Source: Bacillota bacterium
GTDB taxonomy: Bacteria > Bacillota > Sulfobacillia > JAIMAT01
Direction of reading: 5' to 3'
DNA: 43,643 bases
NCBI GenBank assembly: GCA_023511835.1
Contig: JAIMAT010000010.1
Coordinates: forward strand, 1-43,643
Each line of letters begins with the position of its first letter. Position 1 is the first letter of the stretch. The notes below the pieces were generated by a model, which was not told the DNA's origin, did not search any database, and saw only the letters and a list, made by a program, of their open reading frames with translations. A program made the position numbers and the translations under genes. This document shows, one piece after another, positions 36,601 to 43,643 of the stretch.

Positions 36601-37860
36601 CTATCCCTCCTCGCGCAGCCCGGCCGCCTCGGGCGGCAGCGGCAGGAGGCGGCCCGCCCGCGCCATCTCGCCGTAGTAGCGCGCGCTGGGCCGTACCTCG
36701 CGGCGCTGGGTGGCGTAGTCGACGCCGATCAGGCCGAAGCGGGGGCGGAAGCCCTCCGCCCACTCGAAGTTGTCCAGGAGCGCCCAGTAGAAGTAGCCGC
36801 GCACGTCCAGCCCGCGTGCCAGCGCCGCCGCCACCTGCTCCAGATGGAGGCGGATCCAGAGCTGGCGCTCGCGGTCGTCCAGGGTGGCGATGCCGTTCTC
36901 CGTCACCACCACCGGGCGCCCGTAGGCGGCCGCCGCCTCCAGCGTCCGGCCCAGCCCGTCGGGCGCCCAGACCCAGCCCATCTGCGTCGTCCGCTGGCCG
37001 GGCAGGGCGCTGAGCGGGCTGAGCAGCCCCTGGAGGCGCCAGCTCCAGCGGCTCCAGCTGCGCGAGTAGTAGTTGAGGCCGACGAAGTCCTGCCGCTCGC
37101 GGATCCGCTCCAGGAAGTCCAGGTTGAAGAGCCGCCAGTGGAGCCGGGCGGCGCGCCGGTCGCCGGCCCGGCGCGGGTCCAGCGGCACGAAGTCGATCAT
37201 GTTCTGCGCCACGCCCGCCATCGCCGAGCCGCCGCCCAGCGCGTGCACCGCCTCCCAGGCGCGGCGGTGCGCCTCCGCCAGCGCCGCCAGCGCCCGCGCC
37301 GCCGCCCGCGGCGAGCGCAGCTGCGGCGGCCAGATCCCCGCCAGGAAGCCCTGCACCGCCAGCACCATGGGCTCGTTGACTGTCACCCACCACTCCACGC
37401 CGTGCGGTGCCAGCGCCCGCACCACGCGCTCCGCGTAGGCGGCGAAGCGCTCCGGCGCCCGCGGCCAGAGCCAGCCGCCGCGGTTGGCGAGCCAGCGCGG
37501 CAGCGTGAAGTGGTAGAGCGTCACCAGCGGCGTGACGCCCCGCTCCCGGCAGGCCTCCACCATGGCGGCGTAGTGCTCCAGCTCTCCCTCCGCGAAGTCG
37601 CCCGGGAAGGGCTCCACCCGCGCCCACTCCACGCCGAAGCGGTAGGCGTTCAGCCCCAGGTCGGCCAGCAGGCCGATGTCCTCGCGGAAGCGCCGGTAGT
37701 GGTCGGCCGCCAGCCCCGAGCGGTCGCCGCCGGCGACGTGGCCGGGCAGCTGCTCCCAGGCCCACCAGTCGCTCAGCCGGTTCTCGCCCTCCACCTGGTG
37801 ACCGCTGGTGGCCGCCCCCCAGAGGAAGCCGGCGGGGAAGCGGAAGTCCTCGGGGACCAT
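36601..37860 (-). CDS. GH1 family beta-glucosidase/beta-glycosidase
   Basis: The gene encodes 419 aa from ATG 37860, 7 nt after GAGGTGAG. It is a TIM-barrel retaining glycosidase: FRFPAGFLWGAATSGHQVEG at the N-terminus, the acid/base Glu163 in WVTVNEP, the catalytic nucleophile Glu321 in VVVTENGIA, FVGLNYYSRSW, and YFYWALLDNFEWAEGFRPRFGLIGVDY near the C-terminus. All catalytic residues are intact. It lacks a signal peptide, so it acts in the cytoplasm on imported disaccharides or glycosides. No sugar transporter is nearby. The 126-bp gap upstream contains a GATAAT-like box on the minus strand and no gene. Confidence 0.93.
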   Translation of the reverse strand: MVPEDFRFPAGFLWGAATSGHQVEGENRLSDWWAWEQLPGHVAGGDRSGLAADHYRRFREDIGLLADLGLNAYRFGVEWARVEPFPGDFAEGELEHYAAMVEACRERGVTPLVTLYHFTLPRWLANRGGWLWPRAPERFAAYAERVVRALAPHGVEWWVTVNEPMVLAVQGFLAGIWPPQLRSPRAAARALAALAEAHRRAWEAVHALGGGSAMAGVAQNMIDFVPLDPRRAGDRRAARLHWRLFNLDFLERIRERQDFVGLNYYSRSWSRWSWRLQGLLSPLSALPGQRTTQMGWVWAPDGLGRTLEAAAAYGRPVVVTENGIATLDDRERQLWIRLHLEQVAAALARGLDVRGYFYWALLDNFEWAEGFRPRFGLIGVDYATQRREVRPSARYYGEMARAGRLLPLPPEAAGLREEG

Positions 37861-37986
37861 GCGCGCTCACCTCGGACGCGATCTCGGCCGCCCCGCGCGG
37901 CACGCGAACGAAGGCGGCGGGCGCCGCGCCGGCCTCCGGCCGGCCCCGGGCCCACCGCCATTATCCGCCTCCCGCCGCCGGCCCGC

Positions 37987-38562
37987 TCAGAAGACGGTGC
38001 GCCGGCGGGCGAAGCGCTCCTGGACGTAGTCCAGCGTCTCGCCGAAGCGCTGGAAGTGCGTCACCTCCCTCTGCCGCAGGAAGGCGAGCACCCGCGAGAC
38101 GCGCTCGTCGTCCGAGAGGTCGAGCAGGTCCTCGTAGGTGGTGCGCGCCTTCTCCTCCGCCGCCATGTCCTCGTGCAGGCAGGTGACGGGGTCGTCGAAG
38201 GACTGGAAGTAGGTGGCCGTCCAGGGGACGCCGTTGGCGTCCTCCAGGAACATGGCGTAGCCGTGCTGGGCGTAGTGTCCGCCCAGCCCCGCCCGCTCCA
38301 GGTCGCGCGGGGAGGCGTCCTGGATCAGCTTCTGCACCAGCGTGCCCACCATCTCCATGTGGGCCAGCTCCTCGGTGCCGATGTCGGTCAGGATCGCCTT
38401 GCCCCGCCCCGTGGGCATGGCGAAGGACTGGGTCAGGTAGCGCCAGGCGGCGGTGAACTCGCCGTCCGGGCCGCCGAACTGGGTCATGATCACCTTGGCC
38501 AGCGCCGGGTTGGGCCGGGTGATCTCGATGGGGACCTCCAGCTGCTTGACAAAGACCCACAT
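37987..38562 (-). CDS. cotJC: Spore coat CotJC-type manganese catalase
   Basis: The gene encodes 191 aa from ATG 38562, with GGAGGAGG 7 nt upstream. It is a di-manganese catalase of the short CotJC kind: MWVFVKQLEVPIEI at the N-terminus, metal ligands E35 (DGEFTAAWRYLTQSF), E65/H68 (GTEELAHMEM), E136 (AAEEKARTTYEDL) and H169 (EVTHFQRFGE). Length is as for CotJC (~190 aa). It disproportionates hydrogen peroxide and is a spore coat component in endospore-formers. The operon order cotJA-cotJB-cotJC with tight spacing supports the call and shows that the host makes spores. Confidence 0.93.
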   Translation of the reverse strand: MWVFVKQLEVPIEITRPNPALAKVIMTQFGGPDGEFTAAWRYLTQSFAMPTGRGKAILTDIGTEELAHMEMVGTLVQKLIQDASPRDLERAGLGGHYAQHGYAMFLEDANGVPWTATYFQSFDDPVTCLHEDMAAEEKARTTYEDLLDLSDDERVSRVLAFLRQREVTHFQRFGETLDYVQERFARRRTVF

Positions 38563-39389: not shown

Positions 39390-40005
39390 CGCCTCTCCTC
39401 CCTTCCGACGTGGTCAAGCCAGCATATGGACGGCTTCCGGGAAGGGTGCGGCAGCCGCGGTGGCCGGAGGCGGAAAGCCTTGTCCTGCACGGGCTGGCGG
39501 TGTTGTCCAGCGCGTGCAGCGGTACCTGGAATCGGGGGCTGTCGGAGTCTTCGGTCCCCAATCTGCCCCCAACTGGGTTGGTAGTAATTAGGGAACCAGC
39601 AGACCTGGTTTGTCCCCAATCCCCTCCGAAGATCCAAGCGGGGCGACCCCTCCGCCTTGGCCCCTCGGCGACGTAGCCGGTAGACCAAAGCGGGGATCCT
39701 CCCCGGAGGAACCGACCCGGCACGCTGGGGCAAGCAGTAGGGAGGAGGCACGTCAAGCGCATACCGAGCTGTAGGCAAAGATGCCGCCCGTGACGGCGGC
39801 CGTCGCCTGTATCCCAGGTCGTGGTGGAAAAGTCCCGGATGAGCTGAGTTTCCTCCAGCTACGACCGAGGGAACAGACCGAGGTGAAGCCGGACAGGTCG
39901 GCCGGTTCCCGGGACCGAGATTCGGACGCCAGAAGAGCCGGCCGTGGCTGAACCTGGAGACTGCTGGCGCGCGGATTCGATAACGAGGGCGTCGCCTTCG
40001 ACATA
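39390..40005. other. Gene-free accessory junction region
   Basis: There is no supportable gene between the cotJ operon start and the IstB remnant. The stretch contains two GTCCCCAATC repeats (39554-39621) and a GGCTTCCGGG (39430-39439) that also occurs beside the integrase (5908-5917). Codon-like organisation is absent on both strands. It looks like the decayed edge of an inserted segment. Confidence 0.5.
39554..39621 (+). repeat. Second pair of GTCCCCAATC direct repeats
   Basis: Perfect 10-mers at 39554-39563 and 39612-39621 are the same orientation as the pair at 5846-5867 beside the integrase. A degenerate GCCCCCAAC lies between. They may be integrase arm-type sites left by a related element. 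Confidence 0.45.
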
Positions 40006-40350
40006 TACACCGACAACACGAACTCGTCGACCGCGAATGGAGCGAGCGACAGAGCCGCCGGGTCCAGAGGCAGCTGGCAGCTGGAGGAGGCGCATCTGCG
40101 GCTCCCCACCTCGGTGGAGGCGACGACTTCGAGACCGCACCGGGTGGACAAGGCGTGGGTCCACCAGCTGGCCGAAGGGCGCTGGCTCCTGGAACGCCCC
40201 AACGCCTTGATCACCGGCCCTACGGGAGCTGGGAAGACCTTCGTGGCTTGCGCGCTCGGCAACGCCGCCTGCCGTCAGGGTTTCCGTTTCCGCTACTTGC
40301 GGCTCGCAAGACTCCTGAGCGAGCTCAACAGCGTCCCAGCTCGTGGCGGA
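40006..40350 (+). pseudogene. IstB-like (IS21 family) ATPase remnant
   Basis: The IstB helper ATPase is recognisable in two frames. Frame one reads HELVDREWSERQSRRVQRQL (to ~40074). After a tandem 7-bp duplication, CAGCTGG at 40071-40077 and 40078-40084, the match resumes in another frame: LEEAHLRLPTSVEA, LDKALV-like VDKAWVHQLAEGRWLLERPNALITGPTGAGKTFVACALGNAACRQGFRFRYLRLARLLSEL. Walker A GPTGAGKTF is intact. The N-terminal ~50 residues and everything after the LARLLSEL helix (including Walker B) are missing. IstA is absent. This is a dead fragment of an IS21-type element. Confidence 0.75.
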
Positions 40351-40902
40351 ACTTCCCTGGCGGCAGCTTCAGGATCGGGATACCGCCGTCGGCGGTAGGG
40401 ATATCGCCTCACCTCCTGGTCTTTCCGCAGCTTGGCCATCGACTCCTGGCGGAAGTAGCGGCGCGGTGCCGCCTGCCAGGAGTCGCTTTACCCAGGCGGT
40501 AAGGGGAAGGTCCATGGGAGCTGTGGCGAAGTTGGCCCACGACCGCCGCTAGCAGGACGCGGCGCCCCATGTGAGAGCGGCAGAGGAGGCGAAAGCCCGT
40601 TAGTGACTGAACGCGGGCCTACCCACCCCGGCTTTGGCAGCGTATGCTACCTAGGGAGTTCGTGCTACGAACAATGGAAATTGCTGGTACCATCTTCCCG
40701 GCGACATGGCTTGGTTCTTACCACCCAAGGGCGCTTGGCTGATGCGCCTCCGGTTAGCGCGCCCGCGGGCCATCTGCCTCGCGGTCGGCTGTCCCGCAAA
40801 TACTAGTCTCAAGGAGGTCGGGCAATGCCCTTGGCTCAGATTGCTTCCCTGCGTTCTTGAGGCCATCGAACGTTCACCCGACGGCGAAGGGCGGGAATAG
40901 CC
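40351..40902. other. Gene-free decayed region with palindromes
   Basis: No gene is supportable here on either strand. Two strong palindromes are present: an 8-bp perfect repeat around one base (40381-40397), and a composite hairpin at 40441-40484 with an outer 10-bp stem (GACTCCTGGC/GCCAGGAGTC) and inner 5-bp stem (GCGGC/GCCGC). G+C falls toward the right end, approaching the following ATPase gene. The promoter of that gene should lie in its last ~200 bp; no consensus boxes are convincing. Confidence 0.45.
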
Positions 40903-41880
40903 GTGCCAACGGCCGAGCAGCTAAAGGCACTGATTCGCACCCATGCCGAGGGCGACGACGAGCGCTTTTACGCCGTCGCCCTACAGCTCGCTGCCCGGGA
41001 GGCCCGCCAGGGTCATACCAAACTGGCCCAGGAGCTCCGCGACCTGGTTGATGAGGTACGCGCACGTCCAAAGTCCCTACCTGCCAAGCCCGTACCCATC
41101 GTCCAGCCCCGAGGCGAGTTGGCCGGTCTCCTCAGTGCCACATACCCAAAAATCAGGCTTGCTGATATGACCCTCGACCACCTCGTCCGCACCAGGCTCG
41201 ACCGCGTTCTTATGGAGCAACGCAACCGTGCATCACTCCGCGAGCACGGCTTTTCGCCGATCCGCAAGCTCCTCCTAAGCGGTCCACCCGGCACGGGCAA
41301 GACCATGACATCTGCTGCTCTCGCTGGCGAACTAGGGCTAGCCCTCTTCACCATTCAGCTGGATGGGCTTATCACCAAATATCTCGGCGAAACCGCAGCC
41401 AAGCTGCGCCTCATCTTCGACGCCATCCATGCCACACGCGCTGTCTATCTCTTCGACGAGTTCGATGCGCTAGGCGGAGAGCGCTCAGCGCGCAACGACG
41501 TCGGCGAAATCCGCCGCGTTCTCACCTCCTTTCTTCAATTTCTCGAGGTGGACGACTCCGACAGCCTCATCGTCGCCGCCACAAATCATCCCCACCTCCT
41601 TGATGAAGCGCTTTTCCGCCGTTTCGATTCGCTCATTGAGTACTGTTTACCCTCCCAATCCCTCGCAGAACAACTCATCCGCGCCCGGCTTGCACATCTA
41701 GACATAACTGATGTCGACTGGGCGAAGGTACGGGAAGCCACAGACAGGCTCAGCCACGCGGACGTCACCCGCGCGTGCGAACAAGTCGCTAAGAACGCAA
41801 TTCTTGAACGCAGAAACTATGTTCGTACAAAGGAACTTTTGGAAGCTCTCGCCGAGCGTCGTAAGATGCGTTCATTATGA
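40903..41880 (+). CDS. AAA+ ATPase paired with a subtilisin-like protease
   Basis: The gene encodes 325 aa from GTG 40903 with only a weak ribosome-binding site. After a helical N-terminal region (~1-75), a single FtsH/spastin-like AAA+ module carries Walker A GPPGTGKT (127-134), the pore-type loop TKYLGE (158-163), Walker B YLFDEFDAL (182-190), sensor 1 ATN (226-228), the arginine finger region FRRFD (238-242) and a C-terminal lid. It lacks any protease or zinc motif of its own. The subtilase gene starts 17 nt after its stop. I recognise this ATPase as the constant partner of such subtilases in many bacteria, where it may unfold or present substrates or control the protease. Its A/T-richer third positions differ sharply from the backbone, indicating horizontal transfer. 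Confidence 0.85.
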   Translation: MPTAEQLKALIRTHAEGDDERFYAVALQLAAREARQGHTKLAQELRDLVDEVRARPKSLPAKPVPIVQPRGELAGLLSATYPKIRLADMTLDHLVRTRLDRVLMEQRNRASLREHGFSPIRKLLLSGPPGTGKTMTSAALAGELGLALFTIQLDGLITKYLGETAAKLRLIFDAIHATRAVYLFDEFDALGGERSARNDVGEIRRVLTSFLQFLEVDDSDSLIVAATNHPHLLDEALFRRFDSLIEYCLPSQSLAEQLIRARLAHLDITDVDWAKVREATDRLSHADVTRACEQVAKNAILERRNYVRTKELLEALAERRKMRSL

Positions 41881-41896
41881 TGGCGGGGATTGATCT

Positions 41897-43189
41897 ATGG
41901 GCGCGATCCGTGATAAGAGACACTTGATCGTTCCCAAGGAGCCGGCAGTTGAGCCATATCGTCCGCCCAAACGACGCGTCTTACCTCGACCTCTTCCTGG
42001 CCCCGAGGACCGTTTGACTCACGCAGCCGCTCTCCGCACCTCGCTGCAAAAGGCGGAACAGGAGGCCTTAGAGCAGCGTGCAGCCCTGGGTCTGACCGTG
42101 CACGGCGCGCAGCCGGGTATCTACGTCCAGTTCGAAAGCCTACCGGGAATCGATCTTAACGTTAAGTCTCTTGAAGATCGGCGTCAGCGGATAGAGGTTG
42201 TTGCCGTACAGACTGTAAAATCAGGCTCCGATGGTGACCCCGTTCAGCGTGCCACGGTATTTATTCCAGACGGCAAACTCAAACACTTTTTCACGCGCTT
42301 TGAGCAGTATGCCACCGAGCAGACGAGCAAAGGCGAGCCTCGACACAAGGACATGGTGGATCGAATTGCTGATGTTCGGCGCGCCGCGTTGCGGGAACTC
42401 TGGACAGACGCTGTGACAGCTTACCCACGGGAACACGAAACCATTTGGTGGGAGGTGTGGCTTCGCGTCCATGACGGACACGAGGTCGAACGCCTCTGTG
42501 AGTTTGCACGTGTCGTGGGACTTCACATGGGAGAACAAAGACTTGTATTTGACGACCGGATCGTCGTGCTAGTTCGGGCAACGCCAGAACAGCTATCCGG
42601 CTCGATAGACGTCCTTAATGATGTGGCCGAGGTGCGGCGGGCTAAAGAAAGCGCCGCGTTCTTCGTCGACATGTCTCGACAGGACCAACTCGCCTGGGCC
42701 GAGGACTTCTCTCGGCGAATCACCCGTCCGCCGACCGATGCCCCTGCAGTGTGCATTCTGGATACGGGCGTTGCGAGCGGGCATCCCCTGCTTCAACCGG
42801 TCATTGATCAGTCGGGGGTCACGTCCGTAGATCCCACGTGGGGGGGACATGATGACGGCGGTGGACCAGGCCGTATGGGTCATGGGACGGAGATGGCTGG
42901 CCTTGCCGCGTATGGTGATCTTACGCCGCTCTTGAGTGGTAGCGCGCTGGTCCGCGTCCACCACCGGCTTGAGTCAGTGAAGATCCTCCCACCGCGCGGG
43001 GACAATCATCCAAACCTATACGGTGCGATCACTGCGCAGGCAGTTTCTCGCGCAGAAATCCTTGCACCGGATCGACGACGCGTCTTCTCGCTCGCTGTGA
43101 CAGCAAACGACCAGCGGGATCGCGGCCAGCCCACGTCTTGGTCTGCAGCCATTGACGCATTGGCGGCTGGACGGATATTCGACCGATGA
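41897..43189 (+). pseudogene. S8 subtilisin-like protease truncated before the catalytic serine
   Basis: The remaining frame is 430 aa from ATG 41897 (GGGG ~8 nt upstream). It has a long N-terminal region (~1-275; QKAEQEALEQRAALGL, GIYVQFESLPGIDLNVKSLEDRRQRIEVVAV, WWEVWLR, VVLVRATPEQL) of the kind found in ATPase-paired subtilases. The peptidase domain follows, with Asp289 (VCILDTGVASGHPLL) and His329 (GRMGHGTEMAGL). The match ends near residue 425 (SWSAAIDALAAG); the GTS serine motif and the C-terminal part are missing. An IS256-type element lies immediately downstream, so the gene was probably interrupted by it. No signal peptide is present: the protease would be cytoplasmic. Confidence 0.8.
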
Positions 43190-43643
43190 TGTCCCTCTGA
43201 CGCTGTAAAAGCGTTCAGGCTGCCCGGGACGCATCGGAGCTCGGGTTTTCACCCTCGTTCTCTCTGCCGGGCTTCGGCGGCACCGGATCCAGGCCCAGCT
43301 CCTGGCGAAGGGCGAGGATCTGCCGCTGTTCGAGCTGGGTGAGGTGGATCTGCTGCCAGCGGGCGGCGGCCCGGATCAGCGCGCCGAAGATCAGCTTGAG
43401 CGCGCTCCGCTCGTCGAAGAAGCGCGGGAGAACCTTGGTCCGCCGCCGCTCCTCCTCGAAGCTCCGTTCGATCAGGTTGGTGGTCCGCACGAACTTCCGG
43501 TGCCCCGCCGGCAGCCGGAGGTGTTGGAGGCTGGCCTCGAGGTCGTCCTGGAAGCTGTGCACGGCCGAGGGGAGAACCCGCTCGTAGCGGGCGACGAAGT
43601 CCTGGGCGAGGCGGCGCCCCTCTTCCAGGTTGGGCGCGTCGCG
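43190..43643 (-). mobile_element. IS256-family insertion sequence, 3' end, running off the window
   Basis: The element's end lies between the last subtilase-like codon (~43170) and the transposase stop (43217). This interval contains a short palindrome, ACGCT-5 nt-AGCGT at 43200-43214. Neither the opposite end nor a target duplication can be seen. Confidence 0.7.
43215..43643 (-). CDS. IS256-family (mutator) transposase, C-terminal part
   Basis: About 142 residues are visible; the frame stays open to the right window edge, so an apparent GTG at 43562 is internal. The C-terminal mutator signature is clear: VLPSAVHSFQDDLEASLQHLRLP, FVRTTNLIERSFEEERRRTKVLPRFFDERSALKLIFGALIRAAARWQQI. The conserved Glu of the DDE triad lies within NLIERSFEE. 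The enzyme catalyses cut-and-paste or copy-out transposition. It is oriented against the truncated subtilase gene, with the stop 26 nt from that gene's last in-frame codon, and composition returns to high G+C. Confidence 0.88.
   Translation of the reverse strand, partial: RDAPNLEEGRRLAQDFVARYERVLPSAVHSFQDDLEASLQHLRLPAGHRKFVRTTNLIERSFEEERRRTKVLPRFFDERSALKLIFGALIRAAARWQQIHLTQLEQRQILALRQELGLDPVPPKPGRENEGENPSSDASRAA

What the first reader, a model, noticed from the sequence alone, without database searches (positions are those of the whole stretch)
40903..43643. AAA+ ATPase / cytoplasmic subtilase two-gene system disrupted by an IS256 element
Seen: a AAA+ protein with all ATPase motifs, then 17 nt later an S8 protease with a ~275-residue non-catalytic N-terminal region, Asp289 and His329 but no catalytic serine; the match stops where IS256-family DNA begins. 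Both genes are markedly more A/T-rich than the backbone and sit beside IS21 debris. Established: subtilases paired with such ATPases recur in diverse bacteria, and neither protein has a secretion signal. Inference: the pair is a horizontally moved conflict or defence module in which the ATPase gates an intracellular protease, and it has been inactivated by transposition in this lineage.
Basis: partly seen in the sequence, partly recalled or inferred. Interest (0 to 1): 0.78.

Follow-up and report, generated by a model that had tools for sequence, protein, structure and literature searches.

The report
Toxin-antitoxin defence pair broken by transposon
The end of this contig carries a damaged copy of IetAS, a known two-gene bacterial toxin-antitoxin and anti-phage system, whose protease (toxin) gene has been cut in half by a jumping gene while its ATPase (antitoxin) gene is still whole; it is an ordinary relic of a known system rather than a new one.

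Summary
Window 40903-41880 encodes an intact 325-aa AAA ATPase. At 41897 begins an S8 protease that keeps 429 of about 840 residues, with Asp289 and His329 present and the oxyanion Asn and catalytic Ser missing. It stops exactly at the end of an IS256-family element (43185), which supplies the stop codon.

The pair is a divergent IetAS, a known toxin (IetS) - antitoxin (IetA) system first described on plasmid pTiC58 and listed among anti-phage systems. PADLOC IetA scores 241 bits; full-length relatives score 103-134 bits on PADLOC IetS. All 47 relatives with readable upstream DNA carry the ATPase before the protease. Six of 11 examined chromosomal neighbourhoods hold restriction-modification, Wadjet, Qat or BrxL genes. 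The pair is 59% G+C in a 74% backbone, is not found in two sister species, and its tree mixes phyla, so it was acquired horizontally.

The missing half is not in the 96%-complete draft, and no element end there carries the expected target duplication, so deletion and assembly gap remain open.

Verdict: an IS-inactivated, probably antitoxin-only remnant of a known system. How IetA controls IetS is still not established. Low novelty.

The parts
39432..40902 (.). Island DNA that replaces the syntenic region of a sister species; degraded mobile-element sequence
   Evidence: DNA synteny with sister species G001/G002 stops at about 39431; pieces of it recur near ends of contigs C11 and C14
40114..40398 (+). 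IstB (IS21-family helper ATPase) fragment
   Evidence: Pfam PF01695 E=1.2e-15, profile 74-142 of 238
40903..41880 (+). ietA: intact AAA ATPase, 325 aa (antitoxin by homology)
   Evidence: PADLOC IetA PDLC02196 240.7 bits, E=8.2e-72; Pfam AAA; NCBIfam IteA 197 bits, below its cut-off of 510; motifs conserved; confident model, pLDDT 82.6, with PAN/proteasome ATPase as best fold match
41281..41304 (+). Walker A GPPGTGKT of IetA
   Evidence: alignment of 12 IetA
41897..43184 (+). ietS 5' half: residues 1-429 of an approx. 840-residue S8 protease (toxin by homology)
   Evidence: Pfam Peptidase_S8 residues 282-422; PADLOC IetS 45 bits; aligns to residues 1-429 of full-length relatives of about 790-870 aa
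42761..42763 (+). codon of catalytic Asp289
   Evidence: invariant D289 in alignment A1
42881..42883 (+). codon of catalytic His329
   Evidence: invariant H329 in alignment A1
43185..43643 (-). One end and C-terminal part of an IS256-family element, running off the contig end; it supplies the stop codon of truncated ietS (43187-43189)
   Evidence: 98% identical to the complete 1107-bp element in G001 (L050:1414-2520) starting at the same base; same end at C106:1-77
43185..43213 (+). Terminal inverted-repeat end of the element
   Evidence: pattern GATGATGTCC-N7-GCTGTAAA-N-GCG found at 6 element ends in the genome, 0 on reversed-pattern control
43215..43643 (-). C-terminal 142 aa of the IS256-family transposase
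   Evidence: Pfam Transposase_mut E=4e-11; NCBIfam transpos_IS256 E=2.5e-17

Best explanation
This is a horizontally acquired, divergent copy of the IetAS toxin-antitoxin/anti-phage system whose toxin gene ietS was cut after codon 429 by an IS256-family element, leaving the antitoxin gene ietA intact. In the working ancestor, IetS would be a cytoplasmic subtilase toxin that kills or arrests the cell by proteolysis when released. IetA, a classic AAA ATPase of the PAN/FtsH/p97 type, would hold it in check, and phage infection or loss of the carrying DNA would lift that control. In this strain the protease lacks half of its catalytic domain, including the serine, so the system cannot act. An intact antitoxin beside a dead toxin is a state that can be lost without harm. 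Shown here: gene identity, pairing, position of the break, IS identity, G+C contrast, patchy distribution. Taken from published work on relatives: toxin and antitoxin roles, anti-phage listing. Inferred: the trigger, IetA holding IetS directly, inactivity of the fragment.
For: IetA profile match 240.7 bits. Nearest full-length IetS relatives match PADLOC IetS at E=1.6e-36 to 1.3e-39. Relatives pair ATPase then protease in 47 of 47 loci with readable upstream DNA. Relatives 61-75% identical in Acidobacteriota, Alphaproteobacteria and another class of the same phylum, against 41-50% in the same class. Not found in the two sister species, where synteny breaks at about 39431. 417 plasmid records and 18 IMG/VR contigs carry relatives. 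Defence genes beside 6 of 11 chromosomal pairs: type I RM (L004), type IV restriction enzyme (L006), JetD (L007), Wadjet JetC/JetD (L008), BrxL (L010), QatA/QatC (L011). IS end defined by three independent junctions. Literature on relatives: antitoxin-only deletion lethal, toxin or double deletion viable in the mycoplasma pair (PMC6755753); IetS called a toxin (PMC8562856); IetAS listed as anti-phage (PMC9958689).
Against: NCBIfam's equivalog cut-offs for IteA (197 of 510) are not met, nor for IteS by the full-length relatives scanned (48-69 of 900), so this is a divergent branch in which neither toxicity nor phage defence has been tested. The draft genome is 96% complete in 156 contigs and the contig ends in the repeat, so the 3' half could exist unassembled; it would still be separated by the element. 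No element end carries the target duplication expected for the partner of this junction. The order and timing of insertion are not known.
Confidence: 0.86

Rival explanations
1. The intact ietA, with or without the N-terminal half of IetS, is kept because it works alone: as an immunity (anti-addiction) gene against IetAS-bearing plasmids or phages, or as a decoy that ties up incoming IetS.
For: IetA is full length with all motifs, and the 429 residues of IetS contain no frameshift; relatives are common on plasmids and in viral contigs; IetA is intact beside broken IetS in other loci: L003, L011, L013, L085 and L098/L106.
Against: A recent IS insertion explains intact reading frames equally well; no close relative allows a selection test; breaks fall in the longer gene 6 of 6 times, which chance alone would give about 13% of the time (0.716^6).
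Confidence: 0.07
2. The junction is an assembly chimera or one state of a mixed population: the organism carries an uninterrupted ietS, and the assembler joined it to a multi-copy IS end.
For: The contig ends inside a multi-copy repeat (two right ends, four left ends in the draft), and contigs share about 77 bp at element ends, as k-mer assemblies do.
Against: The break is exactly at the element terminus, as in the sister species' copy; no contig anywhere in the draft holds the missing half, while the same query finds it in G073.
Confidence: 0.04
3. The pair is a housekeeping regulated protease (an FtsH- or proteasome-like quality-control machine) and not a conflict system.
For: The IetA fold is closest to PAN/proteasome ATPases and FtsH.
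Against: Present in about 3% of the phylum's sampled genomes (12 of 398), not found in sister species, on plasmids, beside defence genes, toxin-antitoxin genetics in relatives.
Confidence: 0.03

Closest known systems
IetAS (ietA/ietS) of plasmid pTiC58, listed by PADLOC as ietAS and by NCBIfam as IteA/IteS
   Same: Same two genes in the same order, AAA ATPase then S8 subtilase with a long N-terminal region; strong IetA profile match; full-length relatives of this IetS match IetS profiles.
   Different: Divergent: below NCBIfam equivalog cut-offs. This copy lacks the C-terminal half of IetS because of the IS insertion. The pTiC58 proteins themselves were not compared here.
[quoted passage not shown]
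   Same: Same architecture; ATPase shown to be needed only when the protease is present, so losing the toxin is harmless, which is the state seen here.
   Different: Full-length and functional; sequences not compared here.
Intact pairs in Iodidimonas muriae (L004) and in another class of the same phylum (L078)
   Same: 61.9% and 68.6% identical over the 430 residues of this fragment, same gene order.
   Different: Full-length IetS (about 846 aa), no IS.
IS256-family elements
   Same: Transposase_mut/IS256 transposase matches; terminal inverted repeats seen in the sister-species copy.
   Different: Only one end is in the window; no target duplication was recovered.

Membership tests
IetAS | AAA ATPase matching IetA models | tested here: met
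   PDLC02196 240.7 bits over 4-321
IetAS | S8 protease matching IetS models | tested here: inconclusive
   45 bits over residues 269-383 for the fragment; full-length relatives 103-134 bits
IetAS | Adjacent genes, ATPase immediately upstream, same strand | tested here: met
   16-nt gap here; 47 of 47 readable relatives paired
IetAS | Complete catalytic Asp/His/Ser set | tested here: not met
   Asp289 and His329 present; Asn and Ser absent beyond the IS junction. This copy is the broken remnant of a member, not a working system
NCBIfam IteA/IteS equivalogs | Score above the curated cut-off | tested here: not met
   IteA 197 bits against 510; IteS 48-69 bits against 900 in three full-length relatives
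IetAS | IetS toxic alone, neutralised by IetA; phage protection | not testable with these tools
   Published for relatives only
IS256 family | Transposase_mut / IS256 transposase | tested here: met
   Pfam 42.8 bits, above the Pfam cut-off of 21; NCBIfam 62.9 bits, below 150 because only the C-terminal third is present
IS256 family | Terminal inverted repeats | tested here: met
   27 of 40 positions pair in the complete copy in G001
IS256 family | 8-9 bp target duplication | tested here: not met
   None of the four left ends in the draft carries the duplicate of ATTCGACC, and the G001 copy has none; other left ends may be unassembled

The most novel reading that the evidence does not exclude
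The antitoxin-only state is functional: IetA (perhaps with the truncated IetS N-terminal half as a decoy) is retained as immunity against IetAS-carrying plasmids or phages, and recurrent toxin-side breaks in several lineages would reflect conversion of the system into an anti-addiction gene.
Probability: 0.06. Interest if true: 0.5.

Novelty: new member of a known kind. Interest (0 to 1): 0.2.

Why it matters
It adds a clear natural example of a protease toxin being silenced by an insertion element while its ATPase antitoxin stays intact, and extends IetAS to a high-G+C lineage in which the two sister species searched have no copy. The mechanism of IetAS is still described as unknown in the papers read, so its intact close relatives (L004, L078) are useful material, but this copy itself tells little about mechanism.

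Tried and rejected
The IetS structure prediction failed (mean pLDDT 41), so no fold search was made with it and the N-terminal domain remains unassigned; sequence search of PDB finds only the catalytic part of subtilisins. The missing half was sought by protein in the whole draft (none, with a positive control) and through partner element ends and target duplications (no partner). Contigs beginning with an element end were compared with the sister species' next syntenic region, without a match. A 20-base pattern at the junction found no uninterrupted copy in viral contigs. A bias of breaks toward the toxin gene (6 of 6) was considered as evidence and rejected as too weak (about 13% by length alone; MAG frameshifts may be errors). 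The original 2009 paper is not held.

Full report
What is there. The window is the whole of contig C10 of a 2.36-Mb, 156-contig, 96%-complete draft genome. At its right end lie two genes on the + strand. The first, 40903-41880 (GTG start), encodes a 325-residue protein with one AAA domain (Pfam E=9e-28) and complete motifs: Walker A GPPGTGKT, Walker B LFDEFD, sensor ATN, arginine finger FRRFD. The second starts 16 nt later at 41897. Its Pfam match to Peptidase_S8 begins at residue 282 and covers only the first 137 of 288 profile positions. The reading frame ends at 43189 after 430 codons.

The break. Intact relatives are about 790-870 residues long and align with this protein only as far as residue 425-429. 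Asp289 and His329 are present; the oxyanion Asn and catalytic Ser of relatives are not. From 43185 on, the DNA is 98% identical to an IS256-family element in a sister species, G001, beginning at the same base. That copy is complete: 1107 bp, L050:1414-2520, with imperfect terminal inverted repeats. The same end is found on contig C106 of this genome, where it interrupts an ABC-transporter ATPase gene. The last codon of the truncated protease is a hybrid and its stop codon is the element's TGA at 43187-43189. So the protease gene is cut exactly at an IS terminus.

Where is the other half? A protein query made from the C-terminal 412 residues of a close relative finds nothing in the draft genome, while it finds the gene in G073. 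Four contigs (C2, C91, C104, C122) begin or end with the opposite end of the element, so there are at least four copies, but none carries the duplicate of the 8 bases (ATTCGACC) flanking this junction. The 3' half is therefore either deleted or lost in an assembly gap; this cannot be settled here.

What it is. The ATPase matches PADLOC's IetA (240.7 bits, E=8e-72). The protease fragment matches IetS weakly (45 bits), as expected for half a protein; its nearest full-length relatives match IetS at E=1.6e-36 to 1.3e-39. NCBIfam's IteA and IteS models are also the best defence-related matches but fall far below their equivalog cut-offs, in this copy and in relatives. The right statement is therefore 'a divergent branch of the IetAS family', not 'an IteA equivalog'. 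In all 47 related loci where enough upstream DNA is readable, the ATPase gene directly precedes the protease gene: 12 from genome contigs, 3 from class relatives, 6 annotated plasmids, 9 from a phylum sample, 17 IMG/VR contigs. Four other loci were cut by contig ends or unclear.

Origin. The pair is 59% G+C against 74% for the rest of the window. It is not found in the two sister species searched; DNA synteny with them stops at about 39431. Between that point and ietA lies mobile-element debris, including an IstB fragment. The nearest relatives are in another class of the same phylum (68.6% for the IetS fragment), Beijerinckiaceae, Iodidimonas and an Acidobacteriota MAG (61-63%), while the one clear relative in the same class is 41% identical; the tree mixes phyla with strong support for the six-member group as a whole. 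Only 12 of 398 sampled genomes of the phylum have the protease. This is the pattern of a mobile conflict system.

Neighbourhoods. Among 11 chromosomal relatives with flanking DNA, six have recognised defence genes within 10 kb: a complete type I restriction-modification set (L004), a type IV restriction enzyme (L006), JetD and a candidate defence gene (L007), JetC/JetD (L008), BrxL (L010), QatA/QatC (L011). No background rate was measured, so this is a description and not a test. Relatives are also on 417 plasmid records, 307 of them predicted conjugative.

How it works, most likely. In the related mycoplasma pair, deleting the ATPase alone is lethal while deleting the protease or both is tolerated (PMC6755753), the protease is toxic and the ATPase neutralises it (PMC8562856, which also cites the pTiC58 system). 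Reviews and surveys list ietAS as an anti-phage system of unknown mechanism. The IetA model is confident (pLDDT 82.6) and closest to proteasome-activating ATPases and FtsH, which suggests, but does not show, that IetA handles a polypeptide: either IetS itself or a substrate passed to it. I therefore favour an antitoxin role exercised by direct contact with IetS, released on infection or on loss of the carrying DNA. The trigger and the target of IetS are unknown. In this genome the toxin is disabled and the antitoxin remains, the order of loss that toxin-antitoxin logic permits.

A pattern that was weighed and not relied on. IetS is broken while IetA looks intact in L003, L011, L013, L085 and L098/L106 as well as in the window; the reverse was not seen, and L005 has breaks in both. 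IetS is 2.5 times longer than IetA, so six of six breaks in it would occur by chance about 13% of the time, and some breaks in MAGs may be sequence errors.

Verdict on the finding. It is, however, an inactivated copy of an already described system, so interest is low. The gating mechanism remains an inference.

Noticed in passing
L024 (G000:C106) 1-240: The same IS256-family element end interrupts an ABC-transporter ATPase gene, so at least two genes in this genome are cut by this element; four further element ends lie at contig ends C2, C91, C104 and C122.
   Followed up: partly
window 39470-39572 and 40330-40599: Stretches 77-91% identical to sequences near the ends of contigs C11 and C14: repeated mobile-element debris that probably breaks the assembly there.
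   Followed up: partly
L085 (G355:C40): An ietA gene followed after about 120 nt by only the C-terminal part of ietS in an open frame of 352 aa: apparently an N-terminal deletion of the toxin beside an intact antitoxin.
   Followed up: partly
window 40903-41070 (IetA residues 1-56): The model of IetA has three consecutive helices (4-14, 20-35, 39-54) before the AAA domain, with several residues invariant in 12 relatives; its fold was not identified and its similarity to three-helix adaptor domains such as MIT is only an impression.
   Followed up: no
window 36601-38562: Family 1 glycosidase and manganese-catalase-like genes next to the island; this backbone is 83-87% identical to both sister species up to about 39.2 kb.
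   Followed up: partly
IMG/VR loci L090-L107: Eighteen contigs classed as viral carry IetS relatives, 17 with IetA readable upstream, so the pair appears to travel in proviruses or phage-like elements.
   Followed up: partly
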